A stretch of DNA of 64,000 nt from Betaproteobacteria bacterium. GTDB lineage: Bacteria; Pseudomonadota; Gammaproteobacteria; Burkholderiales; SG8-39. The notes beneath the pieces were generated by a model. That model worked only from the letters and a program-made list of their open reading frames with translations. It searched no databases and had not been told where the DNA came from. This document shows positions 4,375 through 56,811 of the stretch, in pieces. The position numbers and the translations under genes were made by a program. Location of the stretch: assembly GCA_029883975.1 (NCBI GenBank), contig JAOUIL010000003.1:36174-100173 (forward strand). The letters run 5' to 3'. Each line of letters opens with the position of its first letter. The stretch's first letter is position 1.

Positions 4375-4685
4375 TGGCGTTCACGGCGATCGTGCGCGTC
4401 ACCGGCGCGGCGGGGCGCTTCGAGGATTTCCGCGAGCGCGTGCGCTGGCTCATGGTGCGCGACATCGACGCCGAGCCCTACACCGAGCACCACCGCCCCG
4501 GCGAGCTCGAGTACCGCTTCGAGCTCGCGCGGGGCATTCCGTTCCCCGCGTTCGTCGAGGCGACGCGCGACTTCGAGGAGCTGCGCGTCGAGGTCGAGTG
4601 GGAGCACGACGGCGCGCGCGGCGGCGCAGCCATCGAGGCTGGCCGCCTGGTGGACAAGTGGACCGGGGAACGGGAGCCGCGTTGA
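4374..4685 (+). CDS. Hypothetical protein
   Basis: ATG overlaps dodecin stop; MAFTAIVRVTGAAGRFEDFRERVRWLMVRDIDAEPYTEHHRP... Confidence 0.6.
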   Translation: MAFTAIVRVTGAAGRFEDFRERVRWLMVRDIDAEPYTEHHRPGELEYRFELARGIPFPAFVEATRDFEELRVEVEWEHDGARGGAAIEAGRLVDKWTGEREPR

Positions 4686-5539
4686 GCGCCGTCGCGCGAC
4701 CGCGGCGCGTGCAGTGCGCCTCTCCGGCGGGGCTGCACCGCATGGCGTACCTGGAGTGGGGCGACCCGACCAATCCCGAGGTGCTCATCTGCGCGCACGG
4801 CCTGACGCGCTGCGCGCGCGACTTCGACAACCTCGCGCGCGCGCTTTGCACCCGTTACCGCGTCGTGTGCCCGGACATGGTGGGGCGCGGCGATTCGGGG
4901 TGGCTCGCCGATCCCGTGTTCTACGCCGTGCCGCAGTACGTGGCGGACATGGTGACGCTGATCGCGCGCCTGGACGTCGAGCGCGTGCACTGGGTCGGCA
5001 CATCGCTCGGCGGCCTGGTCGGCATGGCGCTCGCCGCGCAGAAGGACTCACCCGTGACGAAGCTGGCGCTGAACGAGGCGGGCGCGGTGGTGGCGCACGC
5101 CTCGCTCGAGCGCATCGGCCAGTACCTCGGCACCGACCCGAGATTTCCGAGCATCAAGGCGGCCGAGAAGGTGGTGCGCGCCGTGTCGGCGCCGTTCGGG
5201 CCACATACGGACGCCGAGTGGCGCTTCCTGACCGAAGTGGTGCTGAGGAAGAACCCGGACGGCACCTGGCGTTTCCACTACGACCCGCGCATCGCCGTGG
5301 CCTATCGCGGGCAGATCCCCGAGGGCGACATCGTGCTGTGGGACACCTACGATGCCATTCGCTGCCCGACGCTGCTCATCCGCGGCGCGCAGTCGGACTT
5401 GCTGTCGCGGGAAACCGCCGAGGAGATGACGCGCCGCGGGCCGCAGGCGAAGCTCGTCGAGCTGCCCGGCATCGGGCACGCGCCGACCCTGTTGCACGAC
5501 GACCAGATTGCGATCGTGCGGGAGTTTCTATTCTCGTAG
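4682..5539 (+). CDS. Alpha/beta-fold hydrolase
   Basis: HGLTRCARDFDNLARAL...DMVGRGDS...GTSLGGLVGM nucleophile elbow; TTG at 4682 overlaps upstream stop (ATG at 4742 is an alternative). Confidence 0.85.
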   Translation: MSAVARPRRVQCASPAGLHRMAYLEWGDPTNPEVLICAHGLTRCARDFDNLARALCTRYRVVCPDMVGRGDSGWLADPVFYAVPQYVADMVTLIARLDVERVHWVGTSLGGLVGMALAAQKDSPVTKLALNEAGAVVAHASLERIGQYLGTDPRFPSIKAAEKVVRAVSAPFGPHTDAEWRFLTEVVLRKNPDGTWRFHYDPRIAVAYRGQIPEGDIVLWDTYDAIRCPTLLIRGAQSDLLSRETAEEMTRRGPQAKLVELPGIGHAPTLLHDDQIAIVREFLFS

Positions 5540-5621
5540 GTATTTCAGCGGTGGTTGCCAGCGGCAACTTGCGGCTCGCGTCGAATTGACCGCTATCGAA
5601 CCTAACCGGGCATTCGCGGTG
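5461..5621. repeat. Direct repeat copy A: 3' end of hydrolase gene plus downstream intergenic
   Basis: Contains 29-bp core GCGCCGACCCTGTTGCACGACGACCAGAT (5480-5508) identical to 6642-6670; collinear similarity continues past the stop codon. Confidence 0.85.
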
Positions 5622-5814
5622 TAGATTTGCGACCGATTTGGTGTGCGGATTGCCAAAGCTGCCAACTGCGGCTTTTCTCGGAGTTGTTGTTTGCACCCAA
5701 GGATCGAAAATGACCTTGGTTGAAATTGTCGGATAGGGCGCAACGGTCCAGTAGAGTCGCTCGAGAGGAGTTGCATTTCATAGCGCCAAGGTGGTCCAGG
5801 CGGGAGGTGATGCA

Positions 5815-6588
5815 ATGGCGGGGATCTTCATAAGCTACCGTCGCGACGACAGCGACGTTGCCGCCGGCCGGCTCGCTGATGACCTATCGGAAATCCTCGG
5901 ACCTCACTCGATCTTCCGGGACGTCGACAAACTGGAGCCAGGTGAGGACTTCGAGATAGCGCTGGACCATGCCCTCAGTTCCTGTGTGGTCCTTATTGCT
6001 GTGATTGGCGCGCGCTGGTCGAGCATTACCGATGGTGGGGGGCGTCGACGCCTGGAGGATCCCAAGGATTGGGTGCGCGCAGAGATCAGCCGAGCCTTGG
6101 CGCGCGGCATTCGTGTGATACCCGTTCTGATTTCGGGAACAACTATGCCGCGCGAAGAGGAGGTTCCTGTTGATCTGAAAGCACTTCTCAAGCGTCAGGC
6201 GCTTGAGTTGGGTGATCGACACTGGAAACAGGACATTGAGCTTCTGACACAGGCCTTGGAGAAGATCCCAGGAATCACGAAGCGGGGTCCACCACTGAGC
6301 GCAATGGCCACAGCAATGGGCAGAGTCACCCTGGTTGGGTCAAGGCAATGGTTCGCAATCAGTCCACAGATAATAGTCTCCATTGACAATATGGAAGTGG
6401 CTCGAATGAAGCTGAGCGATCAAGTGACCGTGGAAATCAAACCGGGCGCTCACACGATCTATGGAAAGATGCCCCTCAGCTCCTCAAAGACCACCACTTT
6501 CGATTTGGAGCCGGGCCAAACCCAGACCTTCTCGGTGAGCATCAATCGCCTAACTGGAGGCCTGAGGATCGAACTTCTAGCGGAGTGA
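5815..6588 (+). CDS. TIR-domain protein with additional C-terminal beta-rich domain
   Basis: MAGIFISYRRDDSDVAAGRLADDLSEILGPHSIFRDVDKLEPGEDFEIALDHAL...RWSS...DWVRAEISRALARGIRVIPVLI; C-terminal IIVSIDNMEVARMKLSDQVTVEIKPGAHTIYG...TTTFDLEPGQTQTFSV. Confidence 0.9.
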   Translation: MAGIFISYRRDDSDVAAGRLADDLSEILGPHSIFRDVDKLEPGEDFEIALDHALSSCVVLIAVIGARWSSITDGGGRRRLEDPKDWVRAEISRALARGIRVIPVLISGTTMPREEEVPVDLKALLKRQALELGDRHWKQDIELLTQALEKIPGITKRGPPLSAMATAMGRVTLVGSRQWFAISPQIIVSIDNMEVARMKLSDQVTVEIKPGAHTIYGKMPLSSSKTTTFDLEPGQTQTFSVSINRLTGGLRIELLAE

Positions 6589-6628
6589 ATCCGCGACGCG
6601 AGGAATACACCAAGCAGGTGACACTGGC

Positions 6629-6783
6629 GGGCATCGGCCATGCGCCGACCCTGTTGCACGACGACCAGATCGCGATCGTGCGCGAGTTCCTGGTTTCGTA
6701 GGCATGCCGCGGTAGTTCCTGACATCCGCCTGTCGCTGGCATGGGATTGACCGCTTGCGACCTTAGGCGGACATTCATGCCGT
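6629..6783. repeat. Direct repeat copy B: orphan 3' end of an alpha/beta-hydrolase gene plus intergenic
   Basis: Encodes GIGHAPTLLHDDQIAIVREFLVS* in isolation; matches copy A (5461-5621). Confidence 0.85.
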
Positions 6784-6796
6784 GGACAGGCGCCCA

Positions 6797-7603
6797 ATGC
6801 GAGGTGCGATTGTCTGGGCATGCGCAGCCGGCCTGCTGACGGTCGCCGGTTGCGCCTCTCGTCCAGCAGAGCCGCCAAAGCCGATCAATCTCTTGGCCGT
6901 GCTGCCTGCCTGGGCGCCCGTCACCGATTCCAACCTCGGCTTCGGTTCGTCGGGACCGTCGGTCGTGGTCGTGCCGATCGTCGTGCCGTCCGGGTCGCAA
7001 GGAAGCGGGATATCGACCGGCGGCGCCGTAGCGGCAGGCGTCATTACTTCCGCAGTCATCTATGGCATGCAGGAAAGCAAGCGCAAGGGGCGCGAAGCGC
7101 TCGCCGAGGCGCTGTCGCATATCCACTTCGATGCGGCCGCGGAAGTCGACTCCAGGCTCATACCCGCACTGGAGCAGCGCCAGGTTCGTCTGGTCCGCAT
7201 CACCGATCCCAACATCATCTGGGGTGTGCGCAACGGGAGATTCGACGGCCTGCCCGAGGGCGTCGACGCCATCCTCGACGTGCGCATTACCGAGTCCGGC
7301 TACTACTCTTCCACGCGGGCCGGCGGCTACTCGCCGATGCTCCTGATCACGGCGAACCTGCTTCCGCCGGTGGCCAAAGCCGAGAGCCTGGATGAATTCA
7401 GCTACTACGCGGACTTTCGGGACGGCGGCAAGGACAGGCGATGGATCACGACGCCCACGTCCATGACTTTCGCTACCGTCGAGCTGCTCAAGGCAGGTGC
7501 AGGCGACGCGCGCGCGGGCCTCTCCACGGTGGTGGACCAGATGGTGGCGCTGATGGTCGAGGACCTGCAGCGCCATGCGCGCGGAGAGCTTCGGGTCGAC
7601 TGA
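6797..7603 (+). CDS. Putative lipoprotein
   Basis: MRGAIVWACAAGLLTVAGCASRPAEPP signal peptide with LTVAGC lipobox; ORF-track start at 6782 also possible. Confidence 0.75.
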   Translation: MRGAIVWACAAGLLTVAGCASRPAEPPKPINLLAVLPAWAPVTDSNLGFGSSGPSVVVVPIVVPSGSQGSGISTGGAVAAGVITSAVIYGMQESKRKGREALAEALSHIHFDAAAEVDSRLIPALEQRQVRLVRITDPNIIWGVRNGRFDGLPEGVDAILDVRITESGYYSSTRAGGYSPMLLITANLLPPVAKAESLDEFSYYADFRDGGKDRRWITTPTSMTFATVELLKAGAGDARAGLSTVVDQMVALMVEDLQRHARGELRVD

Positions 7604-7619
7604 GCACGCTCGTTCATCG

Positions 7620-8759
7620 TCAGCCGCGGCGATTCGCCGCGTCCCAGTGCTTCTCGAGATTCGCGATCAGCGCAGGGCTGAAATGGCACACGGCCTGCTC
7701 GCGCGCGTACACCGCCATGTAGCGCCGGAACTCGTCGAGCGGCTCCTCGCCCGAGCGCAGCGCGCGCCTGTTCCCGGCGGCGCTCACCACGCCGGAGTCC
7801 GTGAGATTGGAGATGGTGCGCGCGATCGCCGCGTCCATCCCGCCCACTGGCACGATCTCGTCGCAGATCATGCGCCCTTCGGGCGAGTCGCAGTCCAGCC
7901 GGCGGCCGGCGAGGATCGCCTGGCGCGCGATGCGCGGGCCGACGAAGCGCGGCAGCCGCAGGTTCGCCGCGCCCGGGATGATGCCTTCCTTCCTCGCCGG
8001 CAACGTCATGTAGGCATCCTGCGCGGCGAGCACGTAGTCCATGGTCAGCAGGATCTGGCAGTGCCCGCCGATGGCGAAGCTCTCCACCGCCGCCACCCAG
8101 GGCTTCTCGATGCTGTCCTCCTCGGGATGCACGCCGGGCCGCGCGAGCCCGCGGTACAGCTTGTTGACCAGGCCGAGGTCGCGGATCAGGTACCAGAGGT
8201 AGCGGATCTTCCCCTGGTAAAGGTGCGTGAGATTGATGCCGGCGCCGAACACGCGCTTGCCCGCGTGCTTGGTGTGCGTGACCGTGTCGCCGCGCAGCAG
8301 GCAGAGCTCGCTTTGCCGATCGAGCAGCGCCACGTCGACCGCGATCTCCAGCCCGTCGAGGGTCGTCTCGTCCTCGGCATTGAGGAAGCGCGGGTTGCGC
8401 ATGGTGACGACCACCGCCTTTCCCTCGCGGTGCACGCACGCCCCGGCGAGCTCGAGCGTGCCCTGCGCCTCGAATTCCTCCAGGTGCCGCGCCGAATCGG
8501 CTCGCGGCAGCAGCATGCAGTGCACGAGATGCGTGCCGCACCGAGGATCGGCGAGCACGGCGCCCAGGAAGCGCCCGTAGGCCTTCTCCAGGCCCTTCTT
8601 GTCGCGCTGCATCAACGGCGCCTCGGCCGCCAGCCCGGCGGCGCCGGGCAGCAGACCGGGCCAGCGCGCGCCGGCCCGCCGGCACAGCTCGTCCACGCGC
8701 ACCGGCTGCGACAGCCCGCCGGTGAGCGCGTCGTAGGCGGCAAGCGCGTCGCGCGACAT
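7620..8759 (-). CDS. Crotonase-superfamily protein resembling DpgC ((3,5-dihydroxyphenyl)acetyl-CoA 1,2-dioxygenase)
   Basis: RNPRFLNAEDETTLDGLEIAVDVALL...VFGAGINLTHLYQGKIRYLWYLIRDLGLVNKLYRG...EKPWVAAVESFAIGGHCQILLTMDYVLA...LPARKEGIIPGAANLRLPRFVG. Confidence 0.75.
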   Translation of the reverse strand: MSRDALAAYDALTGGLSQPVRVDELCRRAGARWPGLLPGAAGLAAEAPLMQRDKKGLEKAYGRFLGAVLADPRCGTHLVHCMLLPRADSARHLEEFEAQGTLELAGACVHREGKAVVVTMRNPRFLNAEDETTLDGLEIAVDVALLDRQSELCLLRGDTVTHTKHAGKRVFGAGINLTHLYQGKIRYLWYLIRDLGLVNKLYRGLARPGVHPEEDSIEKPWVAAVESFAIGGHCQILLTMDYVLAAQDAYMTLPARKEGIIPGAANLRLPRFVGPRIARQAILAGRRLDCDSPEGRMICDEIVPVGGMDAAIARTISNLTDSGVVSAAGNRRALRSGEEPLDEFRRYMAVYAREQAVCHFSPALIANLEKHWDAANRRG

Positions 8760-55377: not shown

Positions 55378-55407
55378 CCGCACCCGGGGCGCAAGCCCCG
55401 GATGCGG
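55378..55407 (+). terminator. Hairpin with GCAA tetraloop downstream of nrdAB-DUF2442
   Basis: CCGCA-c-CCGGGGC GCAA GCCCCGG-a-TGCGG. Confidence 0.6.
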
Positions 55408-55413
55408 TTGAAT

Positions 55414-55437
55414 AGTCCGGCCAGAGATGGCCGGGCT
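55414..55437 (+). promoter_or_regulatory. Hairpin with GAGA tetraloop in 5' region of the lysine-rich gene
   Basis: AGTCCGGCCA GAGA TGGCCGGGCT (9/10 pairs plus G-U). Confidence 0.5.
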
Positions 55438-55468
55438 CCTTTGTTCAACTACCCGTAAGGAGCTAGTC

Positions 55469-55750
55469 ATGGCGAAGAAAAAAGCCAAAAAAGGCGGCAA
55501 GAAGAAGAAGAAGAAGAAATCATCAAAGAAAAAGAAGAAAGCACTGAAGAAGTCATCCAAGAAGAAGGCAGCGGGCCGGAAGAAAAAATCCGCCAAGAAA
55601 AAGAAGGCGAAGCCCGTTAAACCTAAGGCCAGCTCTGCGGGAACGATGACGGCGGTCGTAACGCCGTCATCCTCCGCCGCGATGTCCGGCGCGCGAACCG
55701 CGCTGAATCCGGCGGCCGCCTGGCCGTTCCCAACCGGCACCCGGCCGTAA
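55469..55750 (+). CDS. Lysine-rich histone H1-like DNA-binding protein
   Basis: MAKKKAKKGGKKKKKKKSSKKKKKALKKSSKKKAAGRKKKSAKKKKAKPVKPKASSAGTMTAVV...; strong polypurine coding strand and RBS TAAGGAG. Confidence 0.75.
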   Translation: MAKKKAKKGGKKKKKKKSSKKKKKALKKSSKKKAAGRKKKSAKKKKAKPVKPKASSAGTMTAVVTPSSSAAMSGARTALNPAAAWPFPTGTRP

Positions 55751-55760
55751 CCGGGTGCCG
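55735..55760 (+). terminator. Hairpin spanning stop codon of the lysine-rich gene
   Basis: CGGCACCCGG ccgtaa CCGGGTGCCG. Confidence 0.55.
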
Positions 55761-55771
55761 AGTGGGAACGT

Positions 55772-55795
55772 GGCGGGGGGCGCAAGCCCCCCGCC
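55772..55795 (+). terminator. Perfect 10-bp stem with GCAA tetraloop
   Basis: GGCGGGGGGC GCAA GCCCCCCGCC. Confidence 0.6.
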
Positions 55796-55800
55796 GGGCC

Positions 55801-55899
55801 CTCGAAGCTCAGCGGACCGCCTTGGTCGTTCGGCCGCAACTGAAGGGCTGAGGCCGGTCCGCGAGGCTTCCCTTGATCCCAGCCGAGAATTCGGCTGGG
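55801..55899 (+). ncRNA. Candidate structured non-coding RNA element (two-domain fold)
   Basis: GAAGC/GCTTC (804-808:866-870) enclosing GCGGACCG/CGGTCCGC (812-819:855-862), then CCCAGCCGA-gaat-TCGGCTGGG (878-899, perfect). Confidence 0.35.
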
Positions 55900-56115
55900 T
55901 TCAACCTCGACAGCCGCCATTTTACCGGGCTTCGGAAAATCTCCGGGAATCAGGTTCATGGAGCAGAACTGTTCATGTGGCGACGCACCATACGAAAGTA
56001 ACGTCTTCTCAGAAGTCTTTGAGTAGATTAATATTACTTGAACTAATAGCGTATATTGCGGCGCAGCAGCCCTGGGGCAGCCAGTGATCGGACGCCTTGA
56101 GAACTGGGGGTAGAC

Positions 56116-56811
56116 ATGTTCGCATTGGATCAACTGAGCAGACTGTTCCTCTTGGCCCGCGGCCTGTTTGCCCTGGTGGGTCTGGCAGCCGTGCTGGTGG
56201 TGGCCCTGCCGGCGTCCCGCGGAGCGCTTGTCGCGCAGGCCGTATCGGCAGCGACCGCTGTAGACGCGGCGGAAGCCTCGCCGGCAGCCGCCGTCCTGAC
56301 GGCCGAGCGCGTGGAGCCGGTGCGGGTAAGCTCGGCCGAAGCAGCACCGGCCGTCACGGGCGAGCAACTGGCGATCGCGGAGTTCATCGGGCGGCGCTAT
56401 CGCGTCGCGGATTCGGCCAGCGAGGCCTTCGTCGCGGCCGCGTTCCGCGCCGGCCGGGAATTCTCGGTCGACCCCCTGCTGATCCTCGCCGTCATGGCGA
56501 TCGAGTCGCGCTACAACCCGGTCGCCGAGAGCTCGATGGGCGCCATGGGCCTGATGCAGATCATCCCGCGCTTCCACCCGGAGAAGCTCGCCGACCACGG
56601 CGGCGAGGCCGCGCTGCTCGAGCCGGAGATCAACATCCGCGTCGGCACCTGGGTGCTGCACGAGTACATGCGCCGCTTCGGCGACGTCGAAGCCGCGCTG
56701 CTGAAGTACGCCGGCGCGCTCGACGACCCCGCCAGCCAGTACGCGGACAAGGTGCTCGCCGAGAAGGCCCGGCTGCAGCAGATCGTCGCGCGCAGCCGCC
56801 GCCAGACCTGA
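56116..56811 (+). CDS. Lytic transglycosylase (SLT domain)
   Basis: AFRAGREFSVDPLLILAVMAIESRYNPVAESSMGAMGLMQIIPRFHPEKLADHGG...NIRVGTWVLHEYMRRFGDVEAALLKYAG. Confidence 0.88.
   Translation: MFALDQLSRLFLLARGLFALVGLAAVLVVALPASRGALVAQAVSAATAVDAAEASPAAAVLTAERVEPVRVSSAEAAPAVTGEQLAIAEFIGRRYRVADSASEAFVAAAFRAGREFSVDPLLILAVMAIESRYNPVAESSMGAMGLMQIIPRFHPEKLADHGGEAALLEPEINIRVGTWVLHEYMRRFGDVEAALLKYAGALDDPASQYADKVLAEKARLQQIVARSRRQT

What the first reader, a model, noticed from the sequence alone, without database searches (positions are those of the whole stretch)
5461..6783. Single-gene TIR cassette bounded by a direct duplication of the host hydrolase gene's 3' end
The alpha/beta-hydrolase ORF ends with ...GIGHAPTLLHDDQIAIVREFLFS* (5461-5539). 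About 1.16 kb later an orphan fragment encodes ...GIGHAPTLLHDDQIAIVREFLVS* (6629-6702). The copies share an identical 29-bp core, GCGCCGACCCTGTTGCACGACGACCAGAT (5480-5508 and 6642-6670), then ATTGACCGCT motifs placed 54-55 bp after each stop. Between them is one lower-GC TIR gene with no integrase or transposase. The proximal 3' end (GAGTTTCTATTCTCG) looks less host-like than the distal one (GAGTTCCTGGTTTCG), which is what integration at a gene 3' end would give if the incoming DNA replaced the gene end and displaced the original. A mobilised-in-trans gene cassette is an inference; divergence between copies suggests it is not recent, and a decayed tandem hydrolase duplication is the main alternative.
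Basis: partly seen in the sequence, partly recalled or inferred. Interest (0 to 1): 0.85.

Follow-up and report, generated by a model that had tools for sequence, protein, structure and literature searches.

The report
Small integrase-less island behind hydrolase gene
In one environmental bacterium, a 2-kb patch of foreign-looking DNA carrying a probable anti-phage (TIR) gene and a lipoprotein-like gene sits exactly at the end of a hydrolase gene and has duplicated that gene's end, as small integrating islands do; it is a neat but single example with no recombinase of its own.

Summary
The repeat is real. Positions 5462-5615 and 6624-6776 match at 76% over 154 bp and contain the only exact direct repeat of 25 bp or more in the window (29 bp). 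In three same-genus genomes and two from another genus, the hydrolase stop codon abuts the stop of a convergent enoyl-CoA-hydratase-like gene. Here the two are 2,080 bp apart.

The two copies carry a reciprocal junction signature: left of the shared stretch the proximal copy is host-like, right of it the distal copy is. Their coding differences are almost all synonymous. This fits Campbell-type insertion of a TIR-bearing segment at the gene's 3' end, with the original end displaced, and argues against a decaying tandem hydrolase.

The insert has no recombinase. The genome has an integron integrase, but the insert has no attC site. No other case was found in 100 family or 400 order genomes. It is best described as a small, probably decayed, CIME-like island built in at least two steps; the recombination agent is unknown.

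The parts
4682..5539 (+). Host alpha/beta-hydrolase CDS; its 3' end is the insertion site
   Evidence: Pfam Abhydrolase_6 and Abhydrolase_1; orthologues in most family genomes; GC3 0.92
5462..5615 (+). Proximal repeat copy R1: hydrolase 3' end (to 5539) plus a non-coding tail of about 75 bp ending in TTGACCGCT...CATTC
   Evidence: BLAST repeat; left part host-like, right part less host-like
5480..5508 (+). 29-bp core identical in both copies (proximal); probable region of the crossover
   Evidence: Only exact direct repeat of 25 bp or more in the window
5540..7619 (+). Whole accessory insert of 2,080 bp between the hydrolase stop and the stop of the convergent enoyl-CoA-hydratase-like gene
   Evidence: The two genes abut in G001, G002, G003, G049 and G059
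5815..6588 (+). TIR-domain gene, 257 aa; TIR domain at residues 4-121 and a C-terminal region of about 95 aa without a family
   Evidence: PF13676 TIR_2 E=2.9e-12; GC3 0.63; absent from genus mates
6624..6776 (+). Distal repeat copy R2: displaced hydrolase 3' end (6630-6701) plus a related non-coding tail
   Evidence: the coding part is closer to genus mates than R1 is; 7 of 8 coding differences at third codon positions
6642..6670 (+). 29-bp core identical in both copies (distal)
6782..7603 (+). Lipoprotein-like ORF (GTG start; an ATG in frame at 6800), also part of the accessory insert
   Evidence: Not between hydrolase and ECH in genus mates; no homologue in 400 order genomes at E<=1e-8; GC3 0.80
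7620..8759 (-). Host convergent enoyl-CoA hydratase/isomerase-like gene (called ECH here), the distal flank
   Evidence: Syntenic next to the hydrolase in five relatives; name from sequence character, not profile-tested here

Best explanation
A small integrase-less genomic island sits at the 3' end of a host hydrolase gene and was built in at least two steps. Shown: the hydrolase and the enoyl-CoA-hydratase-like gene were ancestrally tail to tail, and 2.08 kb of foreign-composition DNA now lies exactly at the hydrolase stop codon. Inferred: first, a non-coding tail plus the lipoprotein-like gene entered behind the hydrolase. Later a segment of about 1.16 kb, carrying the TIR gene and a homologous hydrolase 3' end, recombined with the resident 3' end within the conserved stretch (about 5468-5508) in Campbell fashion. 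The newcomer supplied the gene's present last 30 or so bases, and the original end was pushed downstream as the fragment at 6630-6701, so the hydrolase stayed intact. Which enzyme did this is unknown: an integrase since lost or supplied from elsewhere, or homologous recombination over the gene end. The TIR protein is probably an NAD-consuming defence effector, inferred from its family only.
For: Clean empty sites in three genus mates and two genomes of another genus. TIR and lipoprotein ORFs missing from genus mates. Reciprocal junction: where genus mates decide, they side with R1 at 12 of 14 sites left of the shared stretch and with R2 at 5 of 5 sites right of it (Fisher P=0.0018). R1-R2 identity is 19/36 left of 5468 and 65/74 right of it (P=1e-4). 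7 of 8 coding differences are at third codon positions (P=0.0026), so both ends evolved as ends of working genes until recently. Low GC and GC3 of the TIR segment, running into R1's 3' end.
Against: One example only; none in 100 family or 400 order genomes. No recombinase in the insert and no serine recombinase in the genome. The two tails share ancestry yet are absent from the empty site, which forces a second, unobserved event; no hydrolase relic marks the distal end of the lipoprotein part. The junction test rests on 19 sites, with the boundary set after inspection, and partly mirrors GC content at third positions.
Confidence: 0.55

Rival explanations
1. Homologous recombination between two natural alleles of one variable slot behind the hydrolase (hydrolase-tail-TIR in one strain, hydrolase-tail-lipoprotein in another). 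A one-sided or uneven exchange joined both in tandem; no site-specific recombinase was ever involved.
For: The tails of R1 and R2 are related and absent from the empty site, as two alleles of one slot would be. The gene ends differ mainly at synonymous sites. No integrase is needed, and none is found in the insert.
Against: No genome with either single allele was found. The right-hand junction would fall by chance within 80 bp of the gene end.
Confidence: 0.25
2. Decayed tandem duplication of the hydrolase, with the TIR gene captured between the copies and most of the second copy lost.
For: Left of 5468 the distal copy keeps a weak hydrolase likeness (19 of 36 bases, P=7e-4 by shuffling).
Against: The orphan fragment is more conserved than the copy inside the gene, and almost all coding differences are synonymous. 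Identity drops sharply at one point instead of decaying evenly. No genus mate has a second copy beside the first.
Confidence: 0.1
3. Integron gene cassettes placed at a secondary site by the integron integrase that this genome encodes.
For: The genome encodes an integron integrase on contig C153 (TIGR02249, 490 bits against a cut-off of 265), and the unit is gene plus repeat, like a cassette.
Against: No RYYYAAC...GTTRRRY pair and no relaxed attC-like hairpin between 5400 and 7700. attC sites do not copy the 3' end of a neighbouring host gene.
Confidence: 0.03
4. Assembly chimera of two strains joined at the 29-bp core.
For: The genome is a draft of 175 contigs, probably from a metagenome, and the core is about as long as the shorter assembly k-mers (general knowledge).
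Against: Both outer flanks are syntenic with genus mates. An artefact would need both ends of a 1.16-kb segment joined at the same core, which itself implies a circle or tandem copy of that segment.
Confidence: 0.04

Closest known systems
CIME (cis-mobilizable element) and tandem accretion at a gene 3' end (PMC5704250)
   Same: DNA flanked by two copies of a target gene's 3' end, without integration or transfer genes; [quoted passage not shown]
   Different: Only two genes and about 2 kb; no related ICE or IME is known at this gene; attL/attR activity not shown; the older part lacks a distal repeat
Genomic islands in protein-coding genes, such as dusA islands (PMC4482086) and SGI1 at the 3' end of trmE (PMC8409611 abstract)
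   Same: The element supplies a replacement end for the target gene and leaves the original end at the far side as an imperfect direct repeat
   Different: Those islands carry their own integrase and the dusA islands range from 4.8 to 185 kb; this one has no integrase and a new target gene
Integron gene cassettes, including cassettes lodged outside attI (attG sites; Loot et al. 2024, cited in PMC11389934)
   Same: One gene per repeat; an integron integrase is present in the genome
   Different: No attC site; the repeat is a copy of a host gene end
Stand-alone TIR_2 proteins; Thoeris TIR proteins
   Same: TIR domain with the conserved Glu of the W/F-V-x-x-E stretch; relatives at 40-52% identity in the order
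   Different: Score to Thoeris type III ThcB4 is 47.6 against a cut-off of 220; no ThsA-like or other partner gene next to it; C-terminal region without a family

Membership tests
CIME / integrase-less genomic island | Flanked by two copies of a target gene's end (attL- and attR-like repeats) | tested here: met
   R1 and R2, 76% over 154 bp with a 29-bp identical core
CIME / integrase-less genomic island | Empty site in relatives | tested here: met
   G001, G002, G003, G049, G059
CIME / integrase-less genomic island | No integration or transfer genes inside | tested here: met
   Only the TIR and lipoprotein-like ORFs
CIME / integrase-less genomic island | Derived from an ICE or IME, with att sites that still recombine | not testable with these tools
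   No related ICE or IME at this gene was found; excision needs reads or bench work
Integron gene cassette | attC site (RYYYAAC...GTTRRRY hairpin) at the cassette end | tested here: not met
   No canonical or relaxed candidate in 5400-7700
Transposon | Terminal inverted repeats and a transposase | tested here: not met
   No terminal inverted repeat above chance; no transposase ORF in the insert
Thoeris | TIR protein over the family cut-off, with partner gene | tested here: not met
   Below cut-off; weak partial PADLOC hits to ThsB1 and SAVED-TIR only; neighbours are hydrolase and lipoprotein-like ORF
TIR-domain NADase | TIR domain with catalytic-type Glu | tested here: inconclusive
   TIR_2 above Pfam cut-off and Glu aligned with relatives; single-sequence fold of low confidence (pLDDT 46); activity not testable here

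The most novel reading that the evidence does not exclude
The TIR segment is a minimal single-gene integrating element: a circle of about 1.16 kb that carries a mimic of a housekeeping gene's 3' end as its attachment site and relies wholly on a recombinase from elsewhere, with the lipoprotein gene as a second, older member of the same kind.
Probability: 0.12. Interest if true: 0.65.

Novelty: new member of a known kind. Interest (0 to 1): 0.33.

Why it matters
If the reading holds, it is a clear small example of how a one-gene defence cargo can settle at a gene's end without a recombinase of its own and without breaking the gene, and of how such insertions stack. It also marks this hydrolase end as an integration site to watch in related genomes. 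As a single case without a recombinase or a second copy, it does not establish a new class of element.

Tried and rejected
Repeat DNA against plasmid and phage records: no match. TIR and lipoprotein-like proteins in viral contigs: none; in plasmids only distant TIR proteins and no lipoprotein. Non-coding tail as a widespread motif: in 100 family genomes the only hit is R2 itself; the three viral hits are one coding stretch in related phages; the 40 hits in the 85,488 species genomes are scattered over phyla and lie in open frames of about 100 codons or more, mostly much longer, so no motif family. Repeats flanking the TIR relatives fetched: none. Rfam: no meaningful match. Integron cassette: no attC. 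Terminal inverted repeats, or a hydrolase relic at the distal end of the insert: none. A different insert between the same two genes in G045 (L044) is about 5.9 kb of host-like genes without a repeat. AlphaFold of the TIR and lipoprotein-like proteins without an alignment gave low confidence, so no fold search was run.

Full report
Observation. The repeat is present as described. The hydrolase CDS runs from 4682 to 5539 and the orphan fragment ends with TAG at 6699-6701. The 29-bp core (5480-5508, 6642-6670) is the only exact direct repeat of 25 bp or more in the window. The alignable repeat is 5462-5615 against 6624-6776, 76% over 154 bp, with no comparable third copy in the genome. In 460 kb of the same genome, no other direct repeat of 50 bp or more at 0.3-6 kb spacing bounds a low-GC stretch; the other pairs examined lie in neighbouring similar ORFs or within one ORF. 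The TIR gene has 56.6% GC and GC3 0.63; the flanking host genes have GC3 above 0.92.

Empty site. In the three same-genus genomes held (G001-G003) and in G049 and G059 of another genus, the hydrolase stop adjoins the stop of a convergent enoyl-CoA-hydratase-like gene within a few bases, or overlaps it. Here the two genes are separated by 5540-7619. The tail-to-tail order is therefore most simply ancestral, and 2,080 bp were added in this lineage. The addition includes the lipoprotein-like ORF (6782-7603), which has no match in the genus mates or at E<=1e-8 in 400 genomes of the order, as well as the TIR gene, which has no match in the genus mates.

Junction signature. I compared both copies with 41 relatives' gene ends. 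Left of the shared stretch, where genus mates agree with one copy, they agree with R1 at 12 sites and with R2 at 2. From 5476 to the stop they agree with R2 at 5 sites and with R1 at none (Fisher P=0.0018; the boundary was chosen after inspection and the sites are few). R1-R2 identity is 19/36 left of 5468 and 65/74 right of it (P=1e-4). Of 8 coding differences on the right, 7 are at third codon positions (P=0.0026). So both ends evolved as ends of working hydrolase genes until recently, and the displaced end is the more host-like one. This is the pattern of Campbell-type insertion at a gene 3' end and not that of a decaying tandem duplicate. Part of the signal is GC content at third positions, which is itself what incoming low-GC DNA would bring.

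A complication. The non-coding tails of R1 and R2 (about 75 bp, ending in TTGACCGCT...CATTC) are related to each other but absent from the empty site. The simplest history has two steps: tail plus lipoprotein ORF first, then the TIR segment, which brought its own related gene end and tail. The order and the agent are inferred. No hydrolase relic lies at the distal end before the ECH-like gene. R2's left side keeps a weak hydrolase likeness (19 of 36 bases, P=7e-4), which suggests that the incoming segment carried a longer, drifted piece of the gene.

Agent. The insert has no recombinase. A search for PF00589 finds two proteins in the genome. One, on contig C153, is an integron integrase (TIGR02249). 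The other, on C87, is presumed to be a Xer recombinase because counterparts of similar score occur in all three genus mates; this was not verified. PF00239 finds no serine recombinase in the genome. The integron route was tested: no attC site is present in 5400-7700, so the insert does not qualify as a canonical cassette. An integrase that has been lost or lives elsewhere, or homologous recombination over the gene end, remain open.

Breadth. No second case of a nearby duplicated hydrolase end was found in 100 family genomes or in 400 order genomes at E<=1e-5. The tail motif is not a dispersed repeat. TIR relatives at 40-52% identity exist in the order, but the ones fetched are not flanked by direct repeats.

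Function of the cargo. The TIR protein belongs to Pfam TIR_2 and keeps the Glu that aligns across its relatives. From established knowledge of bacterial TIR proteins it is probably an NAD-consuming immune effector; this is inference. It fails the Thoeris cut-off. The lipoprotein-like ORF has no convincing family match.

Placement. The structure works like a CIME or decayed island stacked at a gene end (definition and accretion scheme in PMC5704250) and resembles dusA islands in supplying a replacement gene end (PMC4482086), but it has no integrase and only two genes. It is a new, small member of a known kind, seen once; interest is modest.

Noticed in passing
L165:3801-4898 (own genome G000, contig C153, minus strand): An integron integrase (TIGR02249, 490 bits) whose 5' end lies about 70 bp from the contig end, where attI and a cassette array would begin. 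A second one is in genus mate G002 (L168:104-1129). No attC site was found near the finding.
   Followed up: partly
window 6782-7603: Orphan lipoprotein-like ORF with no homologue at E<=1e-8 in 400 order genomes and no Pfam family above cut-off.
   Followed up: partly
L068 (own genome G000, contig C132, 14000-14461): A second TIR-domain gene in the same genome, 44% identical over the TIR domain, with a different C-terminal part and no flanking direct repeat within about 1.5 kb.
   Followed up: partly
window 6725-6776: The tail of R2 forms a hairpin on the + strand (TCCGCC...GGCGGA, z -2.2); the same stretch of R1 folds no better than shuffles. It may be a remnant terminator between convergent genes.
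   Followed up: partly
window 55401-56200; L169:13201-18000 (own genome contig C75); L180:15001-15800 (contig C42): Other low-GC stretches (below 60%) in this high-GC genome, possibly further foreign DNA; none is bounded by a direct repeat of the kind studied here.
   Followed up: no
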